From IMG/VR virus record IMGVR_UViG_3300032288_000059, positions 1 through 37,091 of that record: DNA of 37,091 nt, one strand, 5' to 3'. Under the pieces are notes generated by a model, which was given only the letters and a program-made list of their open reading frames with translations, was not told the origin of the DNA and made no database searches. Each line of letters starts with the position of its first letter. Positions within the stretch are counted from its first letter, which is position 1. Both the position numbers and the translations under genes were made by a program. Source of the stretch: a virus. Positions 23,001 to 37,091 of the stretch are shown piece by piece.

Positions 23001-26000
23001 GCAAGTCTCTCAAACGCGGGAAGAAGCAAGAAGTAACTCCTGACGAGACACCCCCACCCCCACCTCCTAAGGGGGGTAAGGCTCTAAAGAAAGCCCCAGC
23101 AAAAAAGACTGAGGCTAAGGCTGAAGCCGCACCCAAAGCAGCCAAGTTGCAGAAAGGCCCGAGTGGTTTGGCTGCAATGGTTGGTCAGCTTATGGGTACT
23201 ACGGCTCAGCCTACTGTGGTTGAGAGCCAGCCTAAACGTGGGCCGAATGAAGCCAGTGCTGAAACAGTCGCAGCCAATGAAGAACTCGACATGGCTATCG
23301 AGACTGCTGAAACAACTAAGAACGCAGCAGCTTATGCTGAGGCTTTGTATGACATTGTGTCTGCTTATGTAACCTCAGCAGACCGTACGTATCTACGTAA
23401 GACATCCACAAAGTTCTTGACAGATGAAGGCGGTGTACCGAAGGGCGACTATGTAGCCGCTCTGCGTGAGATTGCGTTGGATGAAGAATCCATCTCTCCG
23501 AAGTCACGCCTGTATGGTCTGTTGGCTGATGCTGGCTTGTTAAACGATGTGAACGTACTGAAGAACGTACGTGTCCCCGGCGCAAAAACTACACAAGAAG
23601 CAGTGGTAGGAGAAACCATTGGGGCAAACTCTGAGATTACTCCTGAAGAAAGCCTTGCTAACTTCATTGATTCCAATCCACAATGGCCTAACCGCAAGCA
23701 GTTGGTTGACAAACTCAAACAACTATACGGCAGGATTGACGATGATAATTTTCTTGTCGGTAAACGTGGTCGTATTAAAGACTTCTTTGACACTAATGGG
23801 AATCCCTTAGTAACTCAACCTGCTGGTACGTCTTACTTTATTCCTAATACTGTGGCTGAGGAGAAGACTACCAAGTCTGATTTCGTAGCTAAGCACGAGT
23901 CTGCCCGTAAAGAATTGCGGGACTTGGAAGATACTGAAGACCAGACCACATTGGATGACCTCCAGTTTGACCCATTCTATGACCGCAAGCCAAACAGTGA
24001 TGATGACTGGCGTGCTTTCCGTTCTAATGGTAAACCCTTAACGCCAATGAAAGTTGGCCCACTGCGTTTGTTTGCGGCTCGGGTTATCTCTAAGTATGCT
24101 CGTAAGCCACGGGTATCTGTGTTTGCGAATATCCAAGACATGAAGCGTAGCAACCCTGTCCTGTTTGAAGCAGCAGCAAAGGCTCGTAAAGATGGTGACA
24201 TCGAGGCGGTCAATGCCGCAGGTATGGCTTGGGGTGACAACGTGGTTCTGTTTGCAGACCTCATCCACTCTGAAGAACACGCCCGCTTTATCATTGCCCA
24301 TGAAACTCTTGGGCACGTAGGTTTCCGTGGATTGTTTAGTAATCAAGCACTTAACAAGATTCTCCAGTTCGTTGCTGATGCTGACCCTCATCTCACAAAT
24401 GAGGCGATTGTCTACGCAAACGGCAAAGGAATCCCATTCCTCGAAGCAGTCGAGGAGGTGTTGGCAGACCGTGCTGCTGCCATTGACAATAACACAATCC
24501 TTCGGTTTTGGAACTGGTTAAAAGACCAACTGAATAAACTTGGCTTGTCGTTCAACGATGATGCAGCCCGCTACCTTATCAGCCTATCACGCAAGTACGT
24601 GCGTCAGGGCGTTGGGCGTAGTGAAGTCAACACCTCTGGTCTCTATAAAGAAATCAACGAGGCACTGGCTACTGAGCAGTCCGACATTGAAGTATTACGC
24701 TTTGCCCAGTCTGCCGCCCAAGGTTCTGCTAACTTTGCACAGAACTTTGTAAACCGCAACTTTGCCGTTTATGGAAACCTTGAGCGTTCCATCCGTGACA
24801 TTGTGGATGCTTCACAGAAATCTGCCGAAATGCGCAAGCAAGGCAAAGGTGTCCTTGCCAACGTACGTAACGTGGTTCAAAAGGTTCTTGATGGTATTCA
24901 AACCCAAGACAACATGGCTCGTAAGTCTAAGGGCTATTTCAAAATCTTTAGGTTGCTGCAAGACCAAGCGGCTCGTCAAACTGAACTTAAGACCCAGTAT
25001 GCTGAGATAACCAATATTGCCCATGAAGCTAAGTTCCTTGGGTTTGGTGAGGGTTTAACGTCTGAGCAAAGTGTCCGTGCTGGTGAGTTGATGGCATACG
25101 CTACGCTGTTTAAGATGAACCAATTGTCGGATAACGCTATTGCCAAGATGGACAATATCGTGTTCTATGACCCGAACAATCTTGAGCCTATACCTAAGGT
25201 AAACGTAGACGGATTTAACCAGTTAAAACAGGTTGGTCGTATGACCCCTGAGGAATTCCGTAGCGGCTTTAAAGTTCAGCAGGGTACTGAAGAACGCCCA
25301 ATGACTGAGGAATATAAAGCGGAACTGGCTGCGCAACGGGACAAAGAGTTTGCCATTATGGAAGCAGGTAGGAATCGGGAACTTGCCCGCCTGCAAAAGA
25401 AACTGGCTGCGGCTACTAATGAGGAAGCCAAGCTAGAGTTTGAGCTACGCATCAAGCGTCTTGAAAGTAGATACGCCAGTAATGTAGAAAGTACCAAGCG
25501 GTACTACACCAAGCAGATGAACGATAAGACCTATGAGGCTCCTCGTTTAACGAATTCTCTTGACTGGTTTAAAGATGTTGATGGTACTTTAGTCGAGAAT
25601 GACGATGGTACTGTGACCTACACAGGTACAAGTATTGAGTATCAGGTGTACTTGCAATTCCACGAGGCTATCTCTAAGTCGGCTGCGGATGTATTGATTG
25701 GTAAGTACCTTGGTGCTATCCACGAGCAAGCCCGTGCCATTACCTCTGGTGTTGGGGCATCGTTTAATCAGTCACTAACTGCACAGGAAACTAAGTTCAT
25801 TGAGGACATAGTTGAGCAGTACGACCGCATGCGGCTGAAGGATTCAGGCTACAAGAACAACCGTTTTGAGATGAGCGAGTCTGCCCAAGAGGATGCTAAC
25901 GAGTGGCTACGTATGAAGTTTGCCCGTGCGTTCTACTTTGACCTTGCCTTAGGTGACCTAACCAAAATGGTCGAAGGCTATACCCCCGCAGAGGTTGATA

Positions 26001-28591
26001 CGATTGTCCGTGGTATGCGCAAGAAACTCCGTACCAAGGTAGACCCTGACACAGATGACCTTCGGGATAGTTCTATTTGGGCATTAGAGCACCGCATTGA
26101 AGAACGGGCAATGTTTGCCGCCTCTATTAATGATGACCAGTTCTATGCCAAACGAACCATTGCTGGTTCGTACGTTCCCCTCATCCGTGAAGGCGATTGG
26201 CAAATTCGTATTCAAGCCTATAAGACTGTCAATGGACAAGAAGTTCCTATTAAGTTACGCCAAGGGCAACAAGACTCTTTGTTCTACGGCAAGACCGCTA
26301 ATCAAAAGGATGCCCAAGAAGTTCAAGACGAACTGGACAACTTGTTTGCAGGTGAGCACGATATGCGTGACGCCGATGGCAATATGCAGACAGTTAAGTT
26401 GCGAGCCATTGCATCGGTTGCAGAGCAGACTCCTGCCCTTGTGGACATCCTTCACTATGACGAGGTAATGTATTCGCTAAGCCGTTTGGGTATTAACATT
26501 ACTCCCGAGCAACGGACAACCTTGGTTCAGAAACTTACGGCACAGAACACTCGTGCCCGTGCAAACTTAAAGCGTTCGGGTGTACCGGGCTGGGACAAAG
26601 ATGTTGTCAAGAGTGCGTCAGCCTACCTAGAACAGCAGGCATATACCGCAGCCAACAAAGAGTTCCGCCATCAGTACGACGAAGTACTAGACAACCCATA
26701 CAACTGGCAGGGCGACCCAACTCGCTTGGAAGAACTCCGTGTTAAATGGGAAAGCAGCACTGGTGAAGCCAAAGAAATTGCCGCTCGTGACTACTTCCAA
26801 GAGAAGTTCTATTACGACAATGCCGTTGAAGTTATTGATGGTAAGCGTGTAGAGCGTGGCAACTGGTACAAAGAACGTGCTAAGTCTTTGCTCGACTGGA
26901 AAGAATCCACGGGTGACATTGTTCATGCTGACGACATTTGGACAAACAACGAATGGTCTGTTGCGGCTCGTACTTGGGCGGCTATTGCTCAACTTGGTGG
27001 CTCTATTGCTACTGGTGTAACACAGATGCTTTCGTTGCCAACCAACTCATGGGCGTATCTCTCAGCTTTCAATCCTAAGAATGGCTTTGGTTTGGGACTA
27101 GGTGCAGGTCGTGCCGCTACGCTTTTGTTTGAGTATGGTCGTAAAGCAGGTAGCTTCCGCTACTCCAACCTAGACTATATCAAAGGGCAGATTAAAGAAC
27201 TGCAAGACAGTGGTGAAGATAGGAACAAGGATGGGTTGACGTTTGCCGAACTGAACTTTCTCCAAACCATGACTGAGGAACAACGCCTTGATGCGGCACA
27301 GTTTAATGCTCTGACTGGTACTAGCCGTGGTCGTAAGATTACTGGCAATCCAACCGCACAAAAAGTTATTCAGGTATGGATGCTTCCATTCAGTTACTCC
27401 GAACAATTTAACCGCCGCACCACACTCCTAGCAGCATATCGTGGTGAGTATGACCGCCAACGTGCTGCTGGCTTAGCCCACAATGAAGCTGACCTTGCCG
27501 CCCGTGCTGCGGCATCTCGTGCCGTTGATGCTACCCAAGGTGATTACGCCCAGTACAACCGCCCTGCTTTCTTCCGTGGTGGTTTGCAGTCTTTCATCTA
27601 CATGTATAAGCAGTACCCAATCCTGATGGTTCAGTTATTGAAGAACATGAACTATGAAGGTCGCATCATCATGCTCGGGTCGTTGCTCTTGCTATCCGGA
27701 GTACGAGGCATACCGGGTTCTGACGACATCTTGGACATTGTTGACGGCATCGCACAACGCCTTGGTTTGAAGGTCGGCTCGGTTGAAAAAGAGTTTGCAC
27801 GTCTGACCCGTAGCGTATTCGGTGAGGAGTTGGCGGCTGAGATTAACCCAATCATCATGCGTGGTTTGCTTGACCATTTCACTGGTCTGTCGTTCTCTAA
27901 CCGCTTAGGTCTTGGCGACATAATCCCCGGAACTGGTCTACTTAAACCATCGGCTACCAAGCAAGAAATTCTGCGTGAGGTGGTAAATATTGCAGGTGCA
28001 CCAACGTCTTTCTTGGCGGGTGCATTTGAATACACGTTCAACACATTACCTGCCGTAGCCACAGGTCGTAAAGGCATAACTTCTTTAGCGACTGACTCTC
28101 CCTTTACGGCTATCAAGAACTTGGGTACTGCGTTTAAGTTCTACGATACTGGTGCGATTGTTGACACCAAGGGATATGTTGTGGCGCAAAACGCTACTGC
28201 TTGGGAAATACTTGGTAAGGCTCTTGGCTGGTATCCATCCCGTGCTCAGGCACAAATGGACTGGTTGATGGCTGACTCACAAGAACAAGCATATATGTCT
28301 ATGATTAAGACTGAAGCTACTCGCCAAGCAGTTGCCGCTCGATTGTCAGGCGATGCTGATGCCGAGAAGGATGTTAAGGAATACATTAAGTCATGGAACG
28401 AGAGCACCAAAGGCACACGTTTAGAGATTCGTAACTTCGAGAAAGGCTTGAGTCAAGCCTATCGTGAAGCACAGAAACCACTTGCGATACGTGCCCTCAA
28501 GTCCTCCGCCAAAGGTGGTAGAGCAGAAGCAAAAGAAATGCTCCGCCTTTATGGGGTAGACGAGGAAACCCTTTCGGGCATCCCCGACTAA
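20087..28591 (+). CDS. Giant 2834-residue ejection protein (MORN, HExxGH, PLxRFG-like)
   Basis: Start ATG 20087 follows an AAGGTGA ribosome site. Domains by eye: an N-terminal region (1-210); a hydrophobic Ala/Gly block (about 218-250, IGVAAAGFFAGGAAGG) and an EGLTELGQE segment near 393, typical of podovirus ejection proteins; a long Gln/Ala/Pro-rich disordered linker (430-850); three MORN-type repeats (853-917); a second basic low-complexity linker (920-1030); an HETLGH zincin-like motif (His1405, Glu1406, His1410); long charged helices (1550-1830); a PLIREG motif (2031-2036) resembling the PLxRFG signature of large polyvalent phage proteins; and a C-terminal hydrophobic/helical region (2300-2834). 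Such proteins are injected with the genome and may form the channel and act on host targets. Size is at the upper end for phage proteins. It ends by overlapping the opposite-strand primase stop. Confidence 0.75.
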   Translation: MATKATQSFENPLYTSSGGSLASDMSGYTFLNPAVSTGSDALQQGLADIAAMGARAQQITQFELPQIKRPPAIQYSPSQKKLAVQGVTFDEDDSEMTLRAEALLDQPPVGTLKGGDWVTLTPQAYGQITSGIRNPSLGRLMSKNFGIGVDQLQLLAGRGLQLAGAEQTGQAIVDQQMDDIRKNLPFRREFSEIDSSRGAIEWLAATVAQQGPNILESIGVAAAGFFAGGAAGGPLGAAGGALAGLAGKTAFKQSVLAALKKQATGEALDAAETKLLKEAAGIAGATILSVGQNYATGAADIYGEFREQGAGADNTNARLAALSGAVPYAVLESLPEFLLASRLFGRGGISARGGSTNLQDIQGKTFLGTQALRGGELLKRGAKGAAVGGTAEGLTELGQESLLIGMTGQDFTDADVQNRLLESFAAGFGVGGTIGAGANLRRGPIGKQPANLLNPGQTTDPPSSDSREVTPVGGPTPSGGMGARPDFVAGAAGVRASTPGDRIYTGPVEPNQFGGAQGVLDLGGIPVAEAKARSMQGNVQPQRVWDVTTQSWREVSPQSADEQVAANFQQKRQERIQLGQYINALKQQLANPNLPPQERANLERQLAQATEAIRTTTDVIDTTQFAREQAGQPPIRQELPTVDPNQLALQFAPPAPSGVGFTDQAAPIVNPAMQQAMNLAQSREAQVQAQAAAAAQREADLNKLQARGQAQRQLDIAQQAMDAARAQQQQTQQQLPTKPLPIRQPQQLELFSRKEAPRPSRAEGLRRGVGTQLPEPTTPVLPVQDLRRSPQVPLFTQQGAPSMAALRSAGTQQQVVPTVQQGATQIAPTGAPVTAVTSEAAKGAALKKEKTGTITFEDGSIYTGQLKKGEPNGQGTLIYSDTSTYTGQFKNGKPQGKGRFEDADGTVFDGQFEDGDFIQPEVTEDATQKGKQQQGRQSKRKQDNAGVQGGGQTGQQPTTQEQGGGTETGGGGKSLKRGKKQEVTPDETPPPPPPKGGKALKKAPAKKTEAKAEAAPKAAKLQKGPSGLAAMVGQLMGTTAQPTVVESQPKRGPNEASAETVAANEELDMAIETAETTKNAAAYAEALYDIVSAYVTSADRTYLRKTSTKFLTDEGGVPKGDYVAALREIALDEESISPKSRLYGLLADAGLLNDVNVLKNVRVPGAKTTQEAVVGETIGANSEITPEESLANFIDSNPQWPNRKQLVDKLKQLYGRIDDDNFLVGKRGRIKDFFDTNGNPLVTQPAGTSYFIPNTVAEEKTTKSDFVAKHESARKELRDLEDTEDQTTLDDLQFDPFYDRKPNSDDDWRAFRSNGKPLTPMKVGPLRLFAARVISKYARKPRVSVFANIQDMKRSNPVLFEAAAKARKDGDIEAVNAAGMAWGDNVVLFADLIHSEEHARFIIAHETLGHVGFRGLFSNQALNKILQFVADADPHLTNEAIVYANGKGIPFLEAVEEVLADRAAAIDNNTILRFWNWLKDQLNKLGLSFNDDAARYLISLSRKYVRQGVGRSEVNTSGLYKEINEALATEQSDIEVLRFAQSAAQGSANFAQNFVNRNFAVYGNLERSIRDIVDASQKSAEMRKQGKGVLANVRNVVQKVLDGIQTQDNMARKSKGYFKIFRLLQDQAARQTELKTQYAEITNIAHEAKFLGFGEGLTSEQSVRAGELMAYATLFKMNQLSDNAIAKMDNIVFYDPNNLEPIPKVNVDGFNQLKQVGRMTPEEFRSGFKVQQGTEERPMTEEYKAELAAQRDKEFAIMEAGRNRELARLQKKLAAATNEEAKLEFELRIKRLESRYASNVESTKRYYTKQMNDKTYEAPRLTNSLDWFKDVDGTLVENDDGTVTYTGTSIEYQVYLQFHEAISKSAADVLIGKYLGAIHEQARAITSGVGASFNQSLTAQETKFIEDIVEQYDRMRLKDSGYKNNRFEMSESAQEDANEWLRMKFARAFYFDLALGDLTKMVEGYTPAEVDTIVRGMRKKLRTKVDPDTDDLRDSSIWALEHRIEERAMFAASINDDQFYAKRTIAGSYVPLIREGDWQIRIQAYKTVNGQEVPIKLRQGQQDSLFYGKTANQKDAQEVQDELDNLFAGEHDMRDADGNMQTVKLRAIASVAEQTPALVDILHYDEVMYSLSRLGINITPEQRTTLVQKLTAQNTRARANLKRSGVPGWDKDVVKSASAYLEQQAYTAANKEFRHQYDEVLDNPYNWQGDPTRLEELRVKWESSTGEAKEIAARDYFQEKFYYDNAVEVIDGKRVERGNWYKERAKSLLDWKESTGDIVHADDIWTNNEWSVAARTWAAIAQLGGSIATGVTQMLSLPTNSWAYLSAFNPKNGFGLGLGAGRAATLLFEYGRKAGSFRYSNLDYIKGQIKELQDSGEDRNKDGLTFAELNFLQTMTEEQRLDAAQFNALTGTSRGRKITGNPTAQKVIQVWMLPFSYSEQFNRRTTLLAAYRGEYDRQRAAGLAHNEADLAARAAASRAVDATQGDYAQYNRPAFFRGGLQSFIYMYKQYPILMVQLLKNMNYEGRIIMLGSLLLLSGVRGIPGSDDILDIVDGIAQRLGLKVGSVEKEFARLTRSVFGEELAAEINPIIMRGLLDHFTGLSFSNRLGLGDIIPGTGLLKPSATKQEILREVVNIAGAPTSFLAGAFEYTFNTLPAVATGRKGITSLATDSPFTAIKNLGTAFKFYDTGAIVDTKGYVVAQNATAWEILGKALGWYPSRAQAQMDWLMADSQEQAYMSMIKTEATRQAVAARLSGDADAEKDVKEYIKSWNESTKGTRLEIRNFEKGLSQAYREAQKPLAIRALKSSAKGGRAEAKEMLRLYGVDEETLSGIPD

Positions 28592-31452
28592 ACGACTTTC
28601 AGTTGCCCATGAGTTAGGTCATTTACCGAATGGTCAGCGTCATCCAAGATTCCCAGTAAGCGTGGGTGATTGAGGTTGATGCCGACCACATAGCATTGTG
28701 GAATCTTAATACCAACATCTTTACCGAAGTACGCTTTCTGTGATTTCGGTGTAGCAATAATCCCTTCTGACTCAAACTCTTGGATAAACGCCTTGTAGTC
28801 ATAGCCCCGAGTGCTAAGCCATTTCCGTAGCTTGGTTCTTTCGACAAGCACTGTTCCGCTCTCGAACTTACCATCATAAGTTTTACGGAATAAGTCATAG
28901 CGCACAAGGATGTCTGCAATATATGGGCGGTTGTTGTCCCGCATTGGCTTCTGTCCGGGGGTGTGCATGACAGTCAAAGTTGCATCCATGTTCTCGTTAA
29001 TGAACTCGCCCAGTGCATCAAACGCATCCATACGATTGGTTGCCGCAGATACCTTCATGGACTTCAGTTCACCCAGTGCCCACTCAGTTGCGTCTTGATA
29101 GTCATACTGGATAAGCCCATACTCTTTAGCCAACTGGTTGCCTAAGTCTGAAAGCACAACACCGACTTCCCAAAAACGTTCGTCTCCAGTAAAGCTAATT
29201 CCATACTTCTTAGGGAACTCATTGATGGCATGGTCAAGCATTGCCTTTAGTCCATCTATACCCAACGGCATCAAGTGTTTAACAAACTCTTGCCCTACTG
29301 TGCCGTAGTTATTCATTAGGAAAGCGTGAATCTGCCGACCCACTTGGCTACCCTTAGTAAACAATGGGTGCGGTGCAACATTAAACTCAAGCAGTCGAGC
29401 GAGCTTGGCGTCCGTAGCATGACCACCTGCGTACAACATACTGTGCAGTGATTCGTTAGTCGATACAGTCATAGTGGTCGCCCACTCTTTGGTTGCTCGT
29501 TCTTCTGCACTGCGGTTAAGTCGTGCCTTATCCCTACCTTGGGATGTCCAGTAGATAAGGTCGCCTGCTTCTTCACGGTCAAGCATTGTCAGTTCGTCTA
29601 CTGTCATGGGTAGGTTGCCATGCAATGAAAGGCGTGAGAACAAACTGTTCTGTGTGAACTTCCCACCGAAATGGAGTTGGTCAGGATTGCCCCATATGGA
29701 TTGCATCATGTACTGACCTAGTGTCTTACCCCCGCCAGTCTTACCATACAAAGAAAGAATCAAACCTTTTAAGCCACTGACCTTGAGCAGTGGTGTTGCA
29801 AATGAAAAACCGATTAGGAACTTGTGGAGTTTTAAATCAGCAGAGTCAAGGATGCGGGTAAAGTTAACCCACTCCTGCAAGTCGCCTTTCGTGCCGTACA
29901 TATCCTCAGATATTTTTCCGACCCCTTGGGCTAGGTTGACTTGCTCAGTAGTGACTGTGCCGTTGGAGTCCCGGCGTAGAAGCGAACTACCAATGACAAA
30001 CTCGTTGTAGTTTGATTTCCAACCCATTGATGAATACAAGTTTGTTAGTCCTCGGCGTTGCTTCAACTCCTCCATGTATGAACGTAAAAGCATTTGGAAG
30101 TTTTCCGTTTGTGACTTGTTAAAAAGAAGGATGCCTTGGTCTGCAATTGTGGTAGAGAAGTCACGACTACCCTGCGCCAAGTTAGCCTGACGCATTACCA
30201 ACTCAGTCCATCCAACGTGTGGACGATTCCACATAAAGCGAACAACCTCGTAGCCAAGTCCTTCGTCTTTGCCATACCCCACTGGGTATAAGTCGAACTT
30301 GCATACGTCAATATCTGTTTCCTCAATGACCATCTTCATACCATCAGTAGTACGTTTAAATGGCTTGGGTACTGGTACAACTGCGGCAAGAGGGTCAACC
30401 ATAGCCGCCATTGATTTGACTTCAGCTAGTTGTGTACCTAGTCTTGCGGGGCTACCAATCTTGTCCTTAAACTTACAACCCTTACAACCATCAGGTCGCT
30501 CAAGCATAAACTTCTCGCACAGTGTTGGGCCTGTTGCGCCGTTCTTCCAGTTCTCAATCTTGGTGGTTACTTCACCTTCATCAAAGTGTTTGTAGTCTTT
30601 ACTCCATTTAATTGCAGTAGCTATCGGCTCTTGGCAGTAGGCAGCGACACCCATCATCTTCCACCAAAAGGGTTCGAGTACATCGTTCTGATTCTCGACA
30701 CCCCATTTAATCTGTTGGCATCCTGCGACCACTCGCTCTGCGTTTGCAGGTTGGTATTCATGCTTGACTGCCATAGCATCCAACAACGTATTGTTACGTG
30801 TCGGTTGTGCGGGTAGCTCATAAGATGAGCCATGAGTAAAAGGTTCGAGTACCGCCCACAACTGGTTGTAGGTTACATCAGGTGCATCACGCAACAACAC
30901 CGCAGTCTTATTGCCTTTGGGGTTTATGCATCCAATCGGTCTAAGAATACGTGCACTATCCCCTGTCACACCAATATCAGGTGTGAACCCTTTCTCTAAG
31001 CAAGCCGCTTTCAATGCGTTAGCCAATGGCTTCCACTGCGCAGGCGCTACCGCCGTATCAAGAATCCAGTAAACATGTAGTCCATTACCTGACGACACAA
31101 TCATCGGCATAGGTAGCCCAACATCTTTGACGAAAGCAATCAAAGCCTTGGCCCCTTCGCTTGCATCAATGAACGGCTTTGGCTTTCCGTTCTTACCAAT
31201 ACCGCAGTCAACGTCTATCGCAAGTACCTTTGTACGCTCAACGAACTCCTGCTTCCTACGCTTCTCTGTGAATGTAGAGATGGCGTAGTACGTGTTTTGC
31301 CCCCTGCTATTTAGGGCGAGTGCAACTTGTGCGAGTTTTTCTACCGAATCAAAGTAACCATGTCTTGGTGCAGGGTTGTCCTGCTCAAAACTAGCTATGC
31401 AATACAATCCTTCAGTTGGTAGTACTCGCTGAAAAAAACTCAGCGTGTCCAT
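28588..31452 (-). CDS. AEP primase fused to DUF927-type helicase
   Basis: This 954-residue protein likely makes primers and unwinds DNA at the phage fork. The N-terminal archaeo-eukaryotic-type primase shows LAIDVD (Asp80, Asp82), SSGNGLHVYW (His126) and GDSARILRPIG (Asp165, Arg168, Arg171). A cysteine set (TLCEKF, then GCKGCKFKDK) follows near residues 310-335, probably zinc-binding. The C-terminal part has an AAA+ core of the DUF927 kind: Walker A GKTGGGKT at 570-577, TVDELTML as Walker B-like, then a VSTNESL sensor strand. A T7-style gp4 with a TOPRIM primase is absent from the window. A 6-bp hairpin lies upstream of its start. The stop (TAG) overlaps the stop of the convergent giant gene. 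Confidence 0.85.
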   Translation of the reverse strand: MDTLSFFQRVLPTEGLYCIASFEQDNPAPRHGYFDSVEKLAQVALALNSRGQNTYYAISTFTEKRRKQEFVERTKVLAIDVDCGIGKNGKPKPFIDASEGAKALIAFVKDVGLPMPMIVSSGNGLHVYWILDTAVAPAQWKPLANALKAACLEKGFTPDIGVTGDSARILRPIGCINPKGNKTAVLLRDAPDVTYNQLWAVLEPFTHGSSYELPAQPTRNNTLLDAMAVKHEYQPANAERVVAGCQQIKWGVENQNDVLEPFWWKMMGVAAYCQEPIATAIKWSKDYKHFDEGEVTTKIENWKNGATGPTLCEKFMLERPDGCKGCKFKDKIGSPARLGTQLAEVKSMAAMVDPLAAVVPVPKPFKRTTDGMKMVIEETDIDVCKFDLYPVGYGKDEGLGYEVVRFMWNRPHVGWTELVMRQANLAQGSRDFSTTIADQGILLFNKSQTENFQMLLRSYMEELKQRRGLTNLYSSMGWKSNYNEFVIGSSLLRRDSNGTVTTEQVNLAQGVGKISEDMYGTKGDLQEWVNFTRILDSADLKLHKFLIGFSFATPLLKVSGLKGLILSLYGKTGGGKTLGQYMMQSIWGNPDQLHFGGKFTQNSLFSRLSLHGNLPMTVDELTMLDREEAGDLIYWTSQGRDKARLNRSAEERATKEWATTMTVSTNESLHSMLYAGGHATDAKLARLLEFNVAPHPLFTKGSQVGRQIHAFLMNNYGTVGQEFVKHLMPLGIDGLKAMLDHAINEFPKKYGISFTGDERFWEVGVVLSDLGNQLAKEYGLIQYDYQDATEWALGELKSMKVSAATNRMDAFDALGEFINENMDATLTVMHTPGQKPMRDNNRPYIADILVRYDLFRKTYDGKFESGTVLVERTKLRKWLSTRGYDYKAFIQEFESEGIIATPKSQKAYFGKDVGIKIPQCYVVGINLNHPRLLGILDDADHSVNDLTHGQLKVV

Positions 31453-31492: not shown

Positions 31493-31780
31493 TCAGTTAA
31501 AACGCTTCATAAGTTCGTCAAGGCGTTCTTTCCTCTGCTTCTGTTCCATAGCGATGACGGCAGGCGTAGGCCATTTGTCATCCACCATGATAGAAAGCAA
31601 TTGTTTGAGGACAGTCCTGACAGTACCATCGTTAGCTTTGCGGATAACTTTCCCCCGCACCCAACCATAATACGTCATACGACTGACACCGAATAGGGAA
31701 GCCATGTCACTGGTTGTCAGCATCATGTGCTTCCGCAATGCCTCGACCTTTGTAAAGTCAATAGGCATATTAGGCGTCAT
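31493..31780 (-). CDS. Small helix-turn-helix DNA-binding protein
   Basis: This 95-residue protein has a Cro/CI-type helix-turn-helix in its N-terminal half: VEALRKHMMLTTSDMASLFG followed by VSRMTYYGWVRGK as turn and recognition helix (about residues 12-45). The C-terminal half is a Lys/Arg/Glu-rich helix (MEQKQRKERLDELMKRF). It could repress or activate phage promoters, or direct replication proteins. It lies between the zinc-knuckle protein and the primase and overlaps the former by 11 bases. A second in-frame ATG at 31768 (four residues shorter) directly follows the upstream stop and is an equally likely start. No integrase is nearby, so calling it a lysogeny repressor is not justified. 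Confidence 0.7.
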   Translation of the reverse strand: MTPNMPIDFTKVEALRKHMMLTTSDMASLFGVSRMTYYGWVRGKVIRKANDGTVRTVLKQLLSIMVDDKWPTPAVIAMEQKQRKERLDELMKRFN

Positions 31781-32738
31781 CTGCGGCTACCTCCCCGACA
31801 AGTGCGGCAATCTCATCAGCCAATGATGCGGCAGATGGGGCAGTAGCAACAGGCTGAGCCTTAGCCTGTGGGGTAGCAACTGCCTTTTTAGGAGCACCAA
31901 AACCACGCTTCGCAGGAGCAGGTTGTTCTGCCACGGGGATAGGAGCAGGTTCAGGTTGAGCCACTACGGGAGCGGGCTTCGGTGCAACTTGTTGTGGTGC
32001 GGCAATCTTTGGTACTGCCGGGGCAGCAGACGTACGCAACTCACCTGTAATCTGACGAACTTCTTCTGTGCCAAACAGTCTATCAACTTCTTGTTGGGTC
32101 ACTTCATCCAAGAAACCGCCAAAGTCAAACTTCAGTTTGGGGAATGATGCATCGGTATCAAAGGACACACGGGTGCGGACAATCTCAGCAGGGATACCAC
32201 GGAGCGACAACTCCTTTTGGTATTTGCTTAAGCCTTGCAAAGCGGCAGGAGTAACGGACAACAAGTATACAGGCCCAGTTGGGTCATCAGCCGATACAAC
32301 TGCCAAACGCTTTTGGTCAGAGCAGGCTTTGATTTGTTTACCTTGTGGAGTTACTTTGCTACCCCATGCGTTTTGTGGGCAAGAAGCACACAGGTCATTC
32401 TGTGGTTCAACACTTGATGCATCAGGTGATACACCATCCATAGAGAAGCAGTCAGGAGAAGCAGGCTCGCTCTCAGGTGTCCACGCCTTGGCATACCAAG
32501 TCTTAGACAGGCGTGGATTAGCACCGACTACAACAATGTCCAATGACGTAGAGTCAAGCACAGTCTCAGTACCGCCCTCAACAATACGGAAACGGCTACC
32601 TTTAATAGAGATACGTGCAGTAGCTTCGCCACTACCAATACCGCCTGCCAATGACTGGGCTAGGATAGAAGGAACACCAACACGTTGAGCGAGGTGGGAA
32701 GGAACTTGCACGTTGGCAAGAGTAATTGCATTGCTCAT
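31770..32738 (-). CDS. Zinc-knuckle, acidic-tailed putative ssDNA-binding protein
   Basis: This 322-residue protein has a strong AAAGGAG ribosome site. The N-terminal 220 residues are mixed beta, with ISIKGSRFRIVEGGTETVL, a run of four cysteines (Cys97, Cys117, Cys120, Cys139; LCASCPQNAWGS and KACSDQKRLAVV around them) suitable for one zinc ion, and DPTGPVYLLSVTP. Residues 235-300 are a Pro/Ala/Gln linker and the end is acidic (ALVGEVAADDA). A folded domain plus flexible linker and acidic tip is the plan of single-strand DNA-binding proteins such as SSB and T7 gp2.5. I recall similar LCxxCPxNxWGS proteins next to phage replication genes. The ssDNA-binding role is inference; no OB fold can be proved by eye. 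Confidence 0.55.
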   Translation of the reverse strand: MSNAITLANVQVPSHLAQRVGVPSILAQSLAGGIGSGEATARISIKGSRFRIVEGGTETVLDSTSLDIVVVGANPRLSKTWYAKAWTPESEPASPDCFSMDGVSPDASSVEPQNDLCASCPQNAWGSKVTPQGKQIKACSDQKRLAVVSADDPTGPVYLLSVTPAALQGLSKYQKELSLRGIPAEIVRTRVSFDTDASFPKLKFDFGGFLDEVTQQEVDRLFGTEEVRQITGELRTSAAPAVPKIAAPQQVAPKPAPVVAQPEPAPIPVAEQPAPAKRGFGAPKKAVATPQAKAQPVATAPSAASLADEIAALVGEVAADDA

Positions 32739-32985: not shown

Positions 32986-33390
32986 TTAGTCCTCCACTCG
33001 GTTAGCGGGTTTACGAATGTTCACTTCTAACTTTGTGCCGTAGTTAACTCCGGGGGGTACGGCTTTATTTGCCTCAATATATCCACGTACGGCAATCTTA
33101 CTGATGCGTTTCTCAAGCATGTCAAACGCTTCTTGTGTGCGGATAAAATCAAGTACTGCATCCCAGTCGCCTACGTTGGCATAGTCTGTGGTGGTTAAGA
33201 ACGCAGTGCCATGCTTGGTCTTGAACGATGTCACACCCTGTATGTCAGCTTGTTCTTTAATCCATGCCTCTAACTTTTCCATCTTGGCTTTGATGGTAGA
33301 CACTCTGTCCTTCACCTCAGCCTCCATAGCTTCCTTCTGCGACCTCAACTTCATGTAGGTCGCCACTACATCATCTACTTGTACAGTCAT
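32986..33390 (-). CDS. Coiled-coil phage protein, possibly Gam-like
   Basis: The chosen ATG start 33390 gives 134 residues, five bases after an AGGTGA ribosome site. A GTG at 33399 would lie inside that site. Residues 1-50 form a charged coiled coil (YMKLRSQKEAMEAEVKDR, KMEKLEAWIKEQADIQGV), followed by TSFKTKHGTAFLTTTDY, WDAVLDFIRTQEAFDMLEKR and a PPGVNYGTKLEVNIRKP end. I recall this pattern (coiled coil, short beta part, aromatic helix, PPGV-Y end) from many phages, generally near recombination or replication genes, without known function. The form is reminiscent of host-nuclease inhibitors such as Mu Gam, but that is speculation. The gene abuts the helicase gene. Confidence 0.6.
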   Translation of the reverse strand: MTVQVDDVVATYMKLRSQKEAMEAEVKDRVSTIKAKMEKLEAWIKEQADIQGVTSFKTKHGTAFLTTTDYANVGDWDAVLDFIRTQEAFDMLEKRISKIAVRGYIEANKAVPPGVNYGTKLEVNIRKPANRVED

Positions 33391-33395
33391 AGTTG

Positions 33396-34949
33396 TCACC
33401 TATTAGTCTGTTGTTGAATTAAATCAAGAAGCAGTCCTTGCAATTTCTGTTTGTTCTTCAATCGCTCGTACATTTTGTACTCAAGGTCTGTCGCCTCGAT
33501 GTGAATAACGTTCGATACATGCTTCTTGCCGATACGCTCAATGCGCCCGTTTGCCTGAACATATTGTTCGTTGCTAGTTATCGGGCCATACCAGACAATG
33601 GTGGATGCACTTGTTAGCGTTAAGCCGTGCGCCATTGTTGCGGGGTGAGCAATTAACACACGTGGATTTTTCTCATGCTGAAAGTCATGGAAAATTTGGT
33701 TGCGCTTTGATGCAGATACCTCACCATTCACAACCGCTACTGTCCAATGCTTGCTAAGTTCTTTCTCCAACATATGCAAAGTACCCGTCAGTGGTACGAA
33801 TACAATTACTTTCTCTCCTGCTTCTTCAATTACCTCCTTTACTAAGTTAACACGTGGGGTACAGTCCAACTCAATGTTCTGTCCATCATCACCATAGGCT
33901 ACACCGCAGGCTATCTGAACTAACTTCTGAATTTTGACTGCTTCATTAACTGCCGTGATAGTTCCATCGGTAGTCATCTCGGTTACGAAATGCCGTAGCA
34001 TTTGCGAATAATGTTTCTTTTGTTCGGGTGTCAACTCCACCTGTCTTGTCTGTACAACTGTATCAGGCAAGTCAAAGCACTCATCACGGGTATACCTTAC
34101 CGCAGGTTGTAGGATGTGCTTCACTATATCTACTGACTCAGGGCGAGGTACAAACTTCCATTGCCCAATCTTCATCATCACCTGTTCACGGAAAGCCGTA
34201 TATGTTTTTGTACAGTATGGACTGTTAACTAATTTAGCCAGTGCCCATGCATCTGTTGGGTCGTTGGGTGTAGGTGTCCCAGTCATCAACCACAAACGTG
34301 TTGCTGAATTAGCTTCCAACCATTTACGAAATATCTTAAACCTTTGTGTCGATGGGTTACGTAGCACCGCCGCCTCATCAATGATTACCAAGTCAAACAT
34401 ACCCAATGCTTGTTCAGAGATGATGTTAAAGCCATCATGGTTAATGATGTAGAAGTCAACCTCTTTCCTAAGAAGTTGTTTGCGTTTGTCTGCCGTACCA
34501 TGAAGCACAGTAAATTTACGATGAGGGAATCCTGTAAAGATTGCATCGCCCCATACCCGTTCCAATGTGGATAGTGGGGACATGATGAGCACCTTCTTGA
34601 CCTGCTTAGTCTTAATCAAATAGTCCGCCGCCCATAGTGCAGATTGGGTTTTACCAGTGCCGATTTCATTCAACACTAACCCGCGTTGATTAAGCGTCAA
34701 GAACGCAGCAGTATCTTTCTGATGGTTATACGGAGTGTACTGGCCGGGCCAGTTGTAATAATGTAGGATGGGTGAGGGCGCATCAATACCCAAGTTGCGT
34801 AGCACACGTACTTCATCAAGGCTATGTGGAGTAAGGACAAGCGGGATACCCCGAACCATCACAGTCTTTGCAGTCGGGATACTATCAAGTACCCGATTGG
34901 GATTGTTTAATTTAAGTGCAAGGGTCTTAGCCCTTTCAACTACTAGCAT
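33396..34949 (-). CDS. SNF2-type superfamily 2 helicase/ATPase
   Basis: This 517-residue protein shows all major superfamily 2 motifs: Walker A NEIGTGKT (94-101), motif Ia LIMSPLSTLERVW, motif II DEAA (191-194), motif III LMTGTPTPNDPTD, and motif VI with QANGRIERIGK near residue 490, plus a WYGPITSNEQYVQA motif V region. The GRxxRxGK ending is typical of SNF2-like enzymes that translocate on double-stranded DNA. The ATG start 34949 follows an AGGTGAC ribosome site; a TTG at 34964 would add five residues and overlap the upstream gene. It follows the VRR-NUC gene directly. VRR-NUC and SNF2 partners are known to be linked in phages and bacteria, so a joint role in recombination or fork repair is likely. 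Confidence 0.85.
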   Translation of the reverse strand: MLVVERAKTLALKLNNPNRVLDSIPTAKTVMVRGIPLVLTPHSLDEVRVLRNLGIDAPSPILHYYNWPGQYTPYNHQKDTAAFLTLNQRGLVLNEIGTGKTQSALWAADYLIKTKQVKKVLIMSPLSTLERVWGDAIFTGFPHRKFTVLHGTADKRKQLLRKEVDFYIINHDGFNIISEQALGMFDLVIIDEAAVLRNPSTQRFKIFRKWLEANSATRLWLMTGTPTPNDPTDAWALAKLVNSPYCTKTYTAFREQVMMKIGQWKFVPRPESVDIVKHILQPAVRYTRDECFDLPDTVVQTRQVELTPEQKKHYSQMLRHFVTEMTTDGTITAVNEAVKIQKLVQIACGVAYGDDGQNIELDCTPRVNLVKEVIEEAGEKVIVFVPLTGTLHMLEKELSKHWTVAVVNGEVSASKRNQIFHDFQHEKNPRVLIAHPATMAHGLTLTSASTIVWYGPITSNEQYVQANGRIERIGKKHVSNVIHIEATDLEYKMYERLKNKQKLQGLLLDLIQQQTNR

Positions 34950-34953
34950 GTTG

Positions 34954-35262
34954 TCACCTGTCAAGTTTCTCTTGTATAACTACACTCAGTTGGTCAATGG
35001 TTTCTTGGTCAAAAACAACCATCCACCAACCACCTGCCTTCTGTATCTTTGCACCGCACTGCATCTGCAAGGCAGTAGGCTTCTTTGTCCTATCTGCTTT
35101 TACCTCAATGCCAAGGAACTGCCCCCTGACTATGGCTATGATGTCGGGTATTCCTGCCATCCCAAAGCCGTTGTTTGCAGGAAAGAAATACCAAATACCT
35201 TTTGCCTTTAACACCTCTACAACCTTACGTTTTATCTTACCTTCGGGTGTCAATGCACTCAT
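34954..35262 (-). CDS. VRR-NUC nuclease
   Basis: This 102-residue stand-alone VRR-NUC domain belongs to the PD-(D/E)XK nuclease group that cleaves structured DNA such as junctions and flaps. The active site is visible: MAGIPDIIAIVRG gives Asp40, FLGIEVKAD gives Glu53 and Lys55, and KKPTALQMQ gives Gln66, the conserved helix glutamine. The N-terminus has PEGKIKRKVVEVLKAKG, the helix usual before the core. The start has an AAAGGGG ribosome site. It is followed by the SNF2 helicase gene after four bases, giving a nuclease-translocase pair. Confidence in the family is high; its exact substrate is not read from sequence. Confidence 0.9.
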   Translation of the reverse strand: MSALTPEGKIKRKVVEVLKAKGIWYFFPANNGFGMAGIPDIIAIVRGQFLGIEVKADRTKKPTALQMQCGAKIQKAGGWWMVVFDQETIDQLSVVIQEKLDR

Positions 35263-35304: not shown

Positions 35305-35964
35305 TTAAACCCTAGCACTGTCACAGTCATGACGAGCAGGGCAAAACCTGCACAATCCTGATGGTCTAGCAGGCCAGTTGTCGTGCTCAAAACTTGTATG
35401 AATACGTTGTATACGCTTCATAATGTCTGCCCATAGCGTGTTGGTTTCCCCCCTGTGGTAGGTCTCTGTGTCCATCTCCATTGTCTTGAGCCATACCAAA
35501 GAAGTGCGTACTGATTGCACGTCAGGGAAGTGCTTAAACACTTGCGCAGCGAACAGTTGCATTTGGAATTGGTCAGCATTTCGCTTGCCTGTTTTCCAAT
35601 CCATCACATTCGCAATGTCTTTATTGATTACAAGGATGTCAAGTTTAGAACGTAGCCATGCGTCAGCATCCCACCAACCTGTTGGTGTAAGGTTGTCGTT
35701 AAGGACTAGCTCTTTCTCGATGTGTAGTTCACCCCCCTTTGAGATACGCTCGACCGATGCACACAGGGGTTCATAGTGAGCAATCTCTTGGGGCAATAGG
35801 GAAGCAGACTTAAGCCTATGCTCAAGGTATTCATGGATGCGTTCGCCATACTTACTAGCCTCACCACCTGCATCAACAACATCTTTAACAATGCGTTGCC
35901 GAAAGTAGCGATACGGGCAGTTCTCGTATAGCTTAATTGCCGAATAGGAATGGCTTAAGTGCAT
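35305..35964 (-). CDS. PD-(D/E)XK nuclease with Fe-S type cysteines (Cas4/AddB-like)
   Basis: This 219-residue protein belongs to the RecB/Cas4-like PD-(D/E)XK exonuclease group. It reads SYSAIKLYENCPYRYFRQ (Cys16) at the start, GERIHEYLEHR (His44), SKLDIL (Asp109), MDWKTGK (Asp122, Lys124), Gln132/134 in the following helix, and a C-terminal CRFCPARHDC (Cys205, Cys208, Cys214). The first Cys plus the three terminal ones make the four ligands of the [4Fe-4S] cluster that staples this fold in Cas4, AddB and related enzymes. In phages such enzymes act as exonucleases for recombination or host DNA breakdown. There is no sign of adjacent CRISPR genes. A GAGGGG ribosome site precedes the ATG. Confidence 0.85.
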   Translation of the reverse strand: MHLSHSYSAIKLYENCPYRYFRQRIVKDVVDAGGEASKYGERIHEYLEHRLKSASLLPQEIAHYEPLCASVERISKGGELHIEKELVLNDNLTPTGWWDADAWLRSKLDILVINKDIANVMDWKTGKRNADQFQMQLFAAQVFKHFPDVQSVRTSLVWLKTMEMDTETYHRGETNTLWADIMKRIQRIHTSFEHDNWPARPSGLCRFCPARHDCDSARV

Positions 35965-36024: not shown

Positions 36025-36258
36025 TCACTCATGCATACGGCGCAAGATGTCGTACTTTAATATTTCCAACTGGGCAATTACCTCAGTTACGTTGTCTATC
36101 TTGGTGGAGTAGCGCATGTATTTGTCATCTGCCTTAAGCATGATAAGAACATCAGTCGCACCCCCCTCCTCGACACGTGCCATCGCTGATTCCAACATGG
36201 CAACAACTTCCTGCTTGCGGGTATTTCCTACTATTTCAGTCAAGTTTGTGATGCTCAT
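36025..36258 (-). CDS. Small protein of unknown function after DNA polymerase
   Basis: This 77-residue protein starts MSITNLTEIVGNTRKQEVVA, has a central strand pair (ATDVLIMLKADDKYMRYSTK) and a C-terminal helix (VTEVIAQLEILKYDILRRM). The ATG has a TGGAGAT ribosome site and overlaps the polymerase stop (TAATG), so translation is likely coupled to the polymerase. No family is recognised. The compact helix-strand-strand-helix form would fit a small accessory or regulatory factor; nothing more can be read. Confidence 0.55.
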   Translation of the reverse strand: MSITNLTEIVGNTRKQEVVAMLESAMARVEEGGATDVLIMLKADDKYMRYSTKIDNVTEVIAQLEILKYDILRRMHE

Positions 36259-37091
36259 TATGTATCTCCATAGTTAGTTGCGTAGCCTGCTTCGCAAGCC
36301 ACAGGTAAATCGGTACACCAGCTAGGTGCAGTGGACATAATCCTGACAAGATGTTGCTCTGCCTCTGACGCCCTGTCCTCCGGGGCCGTGATGATAATCT
36401 CATCATGTACTTGGAAAGCCACGTGGTAGTGTTGCCCAATGGCAGTCATCTGTTCTGATACAACAATCCTAGCCATCGCTTGAATGAGGTTCTCTGTGAC
36501 CTTACCCCCATAGATTTTTGTCCATGAGATTTCGTCTACCTGTCCAGTCATGACTCGTTCTTTGATTGCCTTACGATATGTTCGTGCATCACTGATGTAT
36601 TCATAGTTCGTTCCGTTGGCACGGAGTGCGGGATAGCGGATGTACAAGCTGTTGGGTAGCCTAATGCCTTGCTCGTCATACTCCAACATCTTTGCAATAG
36701 AGCCTGTCTGTCTTGCTACGATGCCACCCAGTGCGCTTCCACACTTCTGCCATAGAGAAACAATCTTGTGATTCTTCTGTCTATATAGACGCACAATCCT
36801 GTCAGCTTGGTCTAGGCTAATCTTCACACTAATATCACCTTGCCCAATCTCTAGGGTACGTCTGAACTTCTCAGCCCCCATGCCATAGCCAAGTCCCAAG
36901 ATACAAGTCTTACCAACAAATCGTTCTACCTTGTCAGCCTTGGTGATGGCTCGCCCATAAACTTCTGATGCGAACTCACTATATACATCACGACCTTGTG
37001 CGAACGCACTAACTAAATCGTGTTGCTCTGCTACCCACGCTACCATGCGGGCCTCAATCTGTGATGAATCACATGCCACAAGAACTTGTCC
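36258..37091 (-). CDS. DNA polymerase, family A, C-terminal half (partial, Leu762 type)
   Basis: The frame runs to the right edge, so only the last 277 residues are present; the GTG-coded Val at 37079 is internal, not a start. Motif A is GQVLVACDSSQIEARMVAWV, the O-helix motif B is R-x3-K-x7-YG (RFVGKTCILGLGYG), and motif C is FQVHDEIIIT with the catalytic Asp. The residue four after the motif B Lys, equivalent to E. coli Pol I Phe762, is Leu (codon 36897-36899). Leu at this site has been linked in phage surveys to slower or temperate replication strategies. The protein copies the phage genome with the helicase-primase encoded downstream. It is the promoter-proximal gene in view of the minus-strand operon. 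Confidence 0.93.
   Translation of the reverse strand, partial: GQVLVACDSSQIEARMVAWVAEQHDLVSAFAQGRDVYSEFASEVYGRAITKADKVERFVGKTCILGLGYGMGAEKFRRTLEIGQGDISVKISLDQADRIVRLYRQKNHKIVSLWQKCGSALGGIVARQTGSIAKMLEYDEQGIRLPNSLYIRYPALRANGTNYEYISDARTYRKAIKERVMTGQVDEISWTKIYGGKVTENLIQAMARIVVSEQMTAIGQHYHVAFQVHDEIIITAPEDRASEAEQHLVRIMSTAPSWCTDLPVACEAGYATNYGDT

What the first reader, a model, noticed from the sequence alone, without database searches (positions are those of the whole stretch)
36885..36923. DNA polymerase A with Leu at the Pol I 762 position
The O-helix reads RFVGKTCILGLGYG. Counting from the invariant Lys, the residue aligned with E. coli Phe762 is Leu. In environmental phage surveys this substitution is linked to slower, higher-fidelity or temperate lifestyles, whereas Phe/Tyr mark fast lytic phages. 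The window shows no integrase, so the lifestyle link is unsettled and worth testing.
Basis: partly seen in the sequence, partly recalled or inferred. Interest (0 to 1): 0.55.

Follow-up and report, generated by a model that had tools for sequence, protein, structure and literature searches.

The report
Phage DNA polymerase carrying Leu762
A bacterial virus copies its DNA with a polymerase that has leucine at a key active-site position; in its relatives this residue comes with two other active-site changes and a distinctive primase-helicase, and it does not by itself tell whether the virus is temperate.

Summary
The polymerase gene (36258-37091, minus strand, cut by the window end) has Leu at the E. 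coli Pol I 762 position (codon 36897-36899); all 82 close relatives aligned agree. It fits the published Leu762 Group I layout: SNF2 protein plus RecB-like nuclease, no RNR found.

The lifestyle inference does not hold for this clade. None of 19 records (window plus 18 relatives of 37-56 kb) has a tyrosine or serine recombinase hit. Across 64 Leu762 records 24 have one; 7 of 24 cultured Leu762 phages do. Leu762 phages here form one clade containing both kinds, so the residue is an inherited marker, not a lifestyle readout.

Two further results. (1) Every phage-type Leu762 polymerase aligned has Tyr where Phe/Tyr762 enzymes have His (E. coli 734; 186 of 186 against 0 of 267), and 184 of 186 have Gly at 765 (0 of 267). 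This may be the compensation a 2026 T7 study calls for but does not name. (2) Surveys call these phages ring-helicase-poor; the window encodes a PrimPol-like domain fused to an MCM-like (Cch/DUF927) helicase, and 59 of 64 Leu762 records carry AAA+ primase-helicase domains, none DnaB. All this rests on one clade.

The parts
36258..37091 (-). Family A DNA polymerase, C-terminal 277 residues (gene continues beyond the window)
   Evidence: Pfam DNA_pol_A 1.1e-25, PHROG DNA polymerase 1.3e-41; full-length homologue L003
36897..36899 (-). Codon for Leu762 (E. coli numbering)
36888..36890 (-). Codon for Gly765
   Evidence: Gly in 184 of 186 phage-type Leu762 enzymes, 0 of 267 Phe/Tyr762 enzymes
36981..36983 (-). 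Codon for Tyr734 (His in Phe/Tyr762 enzymes)
   Evidence: Tyr in 186 of 186 phage-type Leu762 enzymes, His in 267 of 267 Phe/Tyr762 enzymes
37053..37070 (-). Motif A DSSQIE (Asp705 to steric-gate Glu710)
   Evidence: Asp and Glu in all Leu762 rows
36402..36404 (-). Motif C catalytic Asp882
36025..36258 (-). 77-aa ORF next to the polymerase, function unknown
   Evidence: no Pfam or PHROG match
35305..35964 (-). PD-(D/E)XK (RecB-like) nuclease, 219 aa, no helicase domain matched
   Evidence: Pfam PDDEXK_1 1.3e-14; present in 24 of 24 clade loci with enough flank
34954..35262 (-). Small Hjc/VRR-NUC-like endonuclease, 102 aa
   Evidence: PHROG endonuclease 4.1e-16; Pfam Hjc just below cut-off; 24 of 24 loci
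33396..34964 (-). SNF2-family ATPase, 522 aa
   Evidence: Pfam SNF2-rel_dom 3.6e-21 and Helicase_C 5e-16; PHROG 1.5e-103
32986..33399 (-). 137-aa protein, PHROG 'minor head protein'
   Evidence: 24 of 24 loci
31770..32738 (-). 322-aa protein of unknown function in the replication block
   Evidence: PHROG unknown 2.2e-22
31493..31780 (-). 95-aa protein with a sub-threshold helix-turn-helix
   Evidence: Pfam HTH_17 and HTH_3 below cut-off; no PHROG match; 24 of 24 loci
28588..31452 (-). 954-aa primase-helicase: PrimPol-like N-terminus fused to a DUF927 (Cch/SaPI Rep-like) helicase
   Evidence: Pfam DUF927 1.5e-29; PDB sequence hits 8tch and 5dgk; fold hits 5dgk 3.6e-11, 8tch 7.3e-10, 6zp9 PrimPol 5.1e-7

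Best explanation
This is the replicative family A polymerase of a podovirus-like, probably obligately lytic phage clade. Leu762 is inherited from the ancestor of a large Leu762 phage clade that contains both temperate and integrase-free members, so it marks ancestry and replisome type, not lysogeny. Shown: Leu762, Tyr734, Gly765, intact polymerase motifs, proofreading-exonuclease motif residues conserved in the full-length relatives, no recombinase found in the clade. Inferred: the enzyme copies the genome at forks opened by its PrimPol-MCM-like helicase, with the SNF2 protein and two nucleases as accessory factors; and it tolerates loss of the 762 aromatic ring because Tyr734, in the dNTP site, takes over part of its contact with the incoming nucleotide while Gly765 gives the O-helix room. 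I rate the 'inherited marker, probably lytic' part at about 0.75 and the Tyr734/Gly765 compensation mechanism at about 0.4.
For: Leu762 in 82 of 82 clade loci. Phage-type Leu762 rows form one branch, SH-aLRT 98, in a 71-row tree built without the O-helix columns. PF00589 0 of 40 IMG/VR relatives and 0 in the window; PF00239 0 of 19. On that tree recombinase state needs at least 3 changes among 28 scored Leu762 rows while 762 stays Leu. Tyr734 186 of 186 versus 0 of 267, Gly765 184 of 186 versus 0 of 267. T7 Y526L alone loses 97% of activity and the phage cannot complete its cycle, and its authors say compensatory changes must exist (PMC13228545). Primase-helicase identity. AAA+ type domains (DUF927, DUF5906 or VapE) in 59 of 64 Leu762 records; DnaB_C in 0 of 64 against 19 of 31 Phe/Tyr762 records. 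Polymerase model matches Klenow over its length.
Against: Leu762, Tyr734, Gly765 and the helicase type trace to one clade in my sample, so their link has no independent replicates (independent-pair test: 1 to 2 usable pairs, p = 1). Four cyanobacterial contig sequences have Leu762 with His734 and Ile765, so Leu762 can exist without the proposed compensation. Other columns also separate the groups. No IMG/VR record carried a completeness estimate, so a lysogeny gene could sit outside the contigs. A small HTH protein is conserved in the clade and could be a repressor. The contact assigned to position 734 is recalled, not from a call.
Confidence: 0.65

Rival explanations
1. Leu762 does mark a temperate or pseudo-temperate phage here; the lysogeny genes are unrecognised or lie outside the sampled contigs.
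For: Published association. 17 of 21 Leu762 records of the second set carry serine recombinases. A conserved small HTH protein is present.
Against: 0 of 40 relatives have PF00589, 13 of them 47-56 kb; PF00239 0 of 19. The genome-contig scan found its three closest relatives only on short contigs of 5.3-17 kb, no chromosome.
Confidence: 0.15
2. Tyr734 and Gly765 are ordinary clade signatures, fixed by descent, with no compensating role; Leu762 itself is tolerated through other changes.
For: Single origin in the tree; several other columns separate the groups equally well; cyanobacterial Leu762 sequences keep His734 and Ile765.
Against: No exception at 734 among 186 phage-type Leu762 rows, and both positions lie in or beside the dNTP-binding O-helix region, unlike most discriminating columns (734 role recalled).
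Confidence: 0.45
3. Leu762 reflects the fork machinery: these polymerases evolved to work behind 3'-5' AAA+ helicases on the leading-strand template instead of DnaB/gp4-type helicases.
For: DnaB_C 0 of 64 Leu762 against 19 of 31 Phe/Tyr762 records; AAA+ primase-helicase domains 59 of 64. Cch is described as 3'-5' like MCM (PMC7581432).
Against: One clade only; N4-type Phe762 phages also lack DnaB (0 of 12); four Leu762 phages have AAA_25-type proteins instead.
Confidence: 0.35

Closest known systems
Leu762 Group I viral PolA (Nasko et al. 2018, PMC6302109)
   Same: Leu762, neighbouring SNF2-like and RecB-like genes, no RNR found with the two RNR queries used
   Different: Carries a PrimPol-like/DUF927 helicase fusion that the survey's helicase list (UvrD, DnaB, Gp4, RecB, SNF2) did not score; the RecB-like gene here is a 219-aa nuclease with no helicase domain matched
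Pseudomonas phage R18 / KPP25 (Kochitakasuvirus) polymerase
   Same: Leu762, Tyr734, Gly765; closest cultured PolA, 41% identical; no PF00589 or PF00239 in R18
   Different: R18 has a DUF5906-type rather than DUF927 helicase
SCCmec Cch (5dgk) and SaPIBov1 Rep (8tch) helicases
   Same: Match the DUF927 part of the 954-aa protein by sequence and by fold
   Different: Here fused to a PrimPol-like N-terminal domain and carried by a phage
T7 gp5 and Klenow/Taq Pol I
   Same: Fold, catalytic Asp, Glu710, Arg754, Lys758, Tyr766
   Different: Phe/Tyr762 with His734 and Leu or Ile at 765

Membership tests
Family A DNA polymerase | Motifs A, B and C with catalytic Asp705, Lys758, Asp882 | tested here: met
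Family A DNA polymerase | Klenow-like fold over the whole protein | tested here: met
   Foldseek 8oo6 E 4.8e-19, TMq 0.66, model pLDDT 83.9 of the L003 homologue
Leu762 Group I viral PolA | Leu at 762 | tested here: met
Leu762 Group I viral PolA | SNF2-like plus RecB-like neighbours | tested here: met
Leu762 Group I viral PolA | No RNR | tested here: inconclusive
   tblastn with two RNR proteins found none in the window and 16 loci; no profile search was made
Leu762 Group I viral PolA | Places with Group I in the authors' tree | not tested
   their sequences were not held; whether my sample includes their Leu II clade is unknown
Temperate phage | Tyrosine or serine integrase | tested here: not met
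   window and near-complete relatives 0 of 19 for both families
Temperate phage | Prophage in a host chromosome | tested here: inconclusive
   one genome-contig scan, 9 relatives; the three closest on contigs of 5.3-17 kb whose flanks were not examined
Cch/SaPI Rep (DUF927) helicase | DUF927 domain with Walker A and match to solved members | tested here: met
Cch/SaPI Rep (DUF927) helicase | Hexameric 3'-5' unwinding | not testable with these tools
   inferred from the family (PMC7581432)

The most novel reading that the evidence does not exclude
Viral Leu762 polymerases use a rebuilt dNTP site: the aromatic side chain lost at 762 is replaced from the opposite side by Tyr734 (His in all other family A enzymes sampled), with Gly765 loosening the O-helix, and this rebuilt site co-evolved with AAA+ primase-helicase forks, not with lysogeny.
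Probability: 0.35. Interest if true: 0.75.

Novelty: new member of a known kind. Interest (0 to 1): 0.55.

Why it matters
Viral ecologists read position 762 as a proxy for lifestyle in metagenomes. Within the Leu762 clade lifestyle markers come and go while the residue stays, so the proxy should not be used phage by phage. A 2026 T7 study found that Leu alone nearly destroys the enzyme and asked which other changes make natural Leu762 enzymes work; Tyr734 and Gly765 are two named, testable candidates. The survey claim that Leu762 phages lack ring-type helicases appears to come from not scoring DUF927, DUF5906 and VapE proteins.

Tried and rejected
Rejected: an alignment shift at the O-helix (three alignments agree). 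Rejected: that this is an HMO-2011-type phage, my first guess; HMO-2011 has Phe762, DnaB and an integrase. Rejected as a statistic: the 762/765 and 762/helicase link as a phylogenetically independent association, because the tree gives one to two usable pairs (the pair test was run for 765 only). Weak: the AlphaFold model of the 954-aa protein has mean pLDDT 60.7, so its fold hits are support, not proof; profile comparison of its family with the Prim-Pol/DUF5906 family found no relation. An attempt to widen the Leu762 sample with the phiM5 polymerase found nothing, and the R18 query brought only two loci. Literature searches for the contact role of His734 or T7 His506 returned no papers. Selection: the 24 cultured phages were picked by me from two listings (40 best and 60 spread) of 1360 matching records for taxonomic spread; the second set of 45 IMG/VR records was picked mainly for length and spread, not at random; the second Leu762 set came from one query (Chi-like). 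Dropped rows: from 465 aligned polymerases, 453 passed the length and residue filter for representatives; rows with gaps or other residues at 762 (N4-type, one T7-type, and one archaeal His762 row) were left out of the 734/765 counts; the four cyanobacterial Leu762 rows are counted apart from the 186, the 186 include three rows from bacterial or archaeal MAG contigs (L083, L084, L085), and the 267 include one cyanobacterial row (L086).

Full report
What is there. The window is a linear IMG/VR virus record of 37,091 bases. Its last gene, 36258-37091 on the minus strand, is the C-terminal 277 residues of a family A DNA polymerase (Pfam DNA_pol_A 1.1e-25; PHROG 1.3e-41). The rest of the gene lies beyond the window, but close relatives carry it whole: about 625 residues starting MDIVTIDFETYYD.

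Position 762. Ungapped alignments to Taq and Klenow chains give window residue i = Taq 602+i = E. coli 697+i. Residue 65, codon 36897-36899, is Leu and equals 762. Arg754, Lys758, Tyr766, Asp705, Glu710 and Asp882 are all in place. All 82 window-clade loci in the large alignment have Leu762.

The enzyme. The AlphaFold model of the L003 homologue (mean pLDDT 83.9) matches Klenow and Bst structures along its length. In alignment A2 the residues of the three exonuclease motifs, Asp7-Phe-Glu9, Asp76 and Tyr148/Asp152, are invariant in 18 of 18 sequences (the motif names are recalled). So a proofreading domain is probably active.

The neighbourhood. Downstream of the polymerase on the same strand lie a 77-aa ORF, a PD-(D/E)XK nuclease, a small Hjc/VRR-like endonuclease, an SNF2 protein, three small or unknown proteins and a 954-aa protein. 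In 24 of 24 clade loci with at least 7.8 kb downstream the nuclease, endonuclease, SNF2, the three further proteins and the 954-aa protein are all present in this order (a 25th locus in that listing is the outgroup R18). The virion side includes a major head protein, an internal virion protein and an endolysin; a 49-kb relative adds terminase and head-tail adaptor (portal-like) genes.

The 954-aa protein. Pfam sees DUF927. Its helicase part matches SaPIBov1 Rep (8tch, 9.2e-12) and SCCmec Cch (5dgk, 2.4e-7) by sequence. A low-confidence model (pLDDT 60.7) finds the same two at 3.6e-11 (5dgk) and 7.3e-10 (8tch), and for its N-terminus the PrimPol domain of cyanophage S-2L at 5.1e-7. The N-terminus has invariant D-x-D and S-G-x-G-x-H residues. 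I read it as a primase fused to an MCM-like helicase. Fusions of archaeo-eukaryotic primases with DUF927 or VirE domains, and the helicase activity of a DUF927 protein, are published (PMC5862659, passages; PMC7581432, passages).

The lifestyle claim. Nasko 2018 and Keown 2022 (passages) report that Leu762 occurs primarily in temperate phages and pairs with non-ring helicases. I tested this. Window clade: PF00589 0 of 40 IMG/VR relatives, of which 13 are 47-56 kb, and 0 in the window; PF00239 0 of 19. Cultured Leu762 phages: PF00589 in 7 of 24 (Mae-Yong1326-1, phiM5, phiFL4A, Javan458, StAB, phiSa2wa, Ollie), PF00239 in 0 of 24. Second IMG/VR set: PF00589 over cut-off in 0 of 21, PF00239 in 17 of 21. 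Total 24 of 64 Leu762 records with a recombinase, against 5 of 31 Phe/Tyr762 records. So Leu762 leans somewhat to temperate overall, through one prophage-rich subgroup, and not at all in the window clade. All 24 cultured phages have Leu762 by alignment. An independent published case is the virulent Bradyrhizobium elkanii phages, Leu762 without lysogeny hallmarks other than a tmRNA gene (PMC12656738, passages).

The helicase claim. DnaB_C: 0 of 43 plus 0 of 21 Leu762 records; 6 of 7 plus 13 of 24 Phe/Tyr762 records, the 12 misses being N4 and 11 N4-like. DUF927 is in the window and 17 of 18 near-complete relatives; the eighteenth, L074, has only about 1.3 kb after the polymerase gene. Among 24 cultured phages 20 have DUF927, DUF5906 or VapE domains and 4 an AAA_25 protein. 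In the second set 21 of 21 Leu762 records have DUF5906 or VapE. DUF5906 is in 0 of 31 Phe/Tyr762 records; VapE over cut-off in 0 of 24 tested; DUF927 was tested in only two of them, 0 of 2. So Leu762 phages do not lack replicative helicase candidates; the surveys' helicase list omitted these families. That they form rings is inferred from their families.

Other active-site residues. On 43 phage-type Leu762 and 26 Phe/Tyr762 representatives (below 72% identity), the column of E. coli His734 is Tyr in 43 of 43 and His in 26 of 26; column 765 is Gly in 41 of 43 and 0 of 26. On all rows: Tyr734 186 of 186 phage-type Leu762, His734 267 of 267 Phe/Tyr762; Gly765 184 of 186 against 0 of 267. Four cyanobacterial contig sequences with Leu762 keep His734 and Ile765. 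From recalled structures, His734 (Taq 639, T7 506) touches the triphosphate of the incoming dNTP beside residue 762. Hence the proposal that Tyr734 makes up for the missing ring. Keown 2026 states that natural Leu enzymes need compensatory changes; its main text does not contain the terms 506, 529, 765, glycine or histidine. I did not see its supplement. Searches for earlier mention used and are limited to the held open-access library.

Limits. Phage-type Leu762 rows form one branch (SH-aLRT 98), so Leu762, Tyr734, Gly765 and helicase type may be one inherited package; the independent-pair test has no power. The tree program warned of long branches meeting. Recombinase state changes at least three times within that branch while 762 does not (28 scored rows; the window clade was scored as one negative row). 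My sampling was by similarity to chosen queries, not random.

Verdict. Real and correctly described residue; ordinary member of the known Leu762 group; the lifestyle reading is not supported for this clade; the Tyr734/Gly765 signature is the part worth following.

Noticed in passing
L087, L088, L089, L091 (Pleurocapsales contigs): Cyanobacterial PolA-like proteins with Leu762 but His734 and Ile765 (NLGLIYG): a separate Leu762 case without the phage signature.
   Followed up: partly
L115 (Microbacterium phage Burro) and L109 (Xanthomonas phage XapPhi2): Very long-branch Leu762 polymerases; XapPhi2 has Gln at 765 but keeps Tyr734.
   Followed up: partly
L117 (HMO-2011) and records of L199, L229, L262: HMO-2011-type Phe762 records mostly carry a tyrosine integrase gene (4 of 5), at odds with Phe762 as a marker of lytic phages.
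   Followed up: partly
window 20087-28591: A 2834-aa ORF on the plus strand, apparently a giant internal virion protein, much less conserved across relatives (30-99% identity) than the replication genes.
   Followed up: no
L540:1733-2122: 130-aa protein just upstream of the polymerase gene in a relative, with C-terminal similarity to many PHROG 'nucleotide kinase' families although it looks too short for a kinase.
   Followed up: no
L083, L084, L085: Relatives of this polymerase in bacterial and archaeal MAGs on contigs of 5-17 kb, probably binned phage contigs.
   Followed up: no
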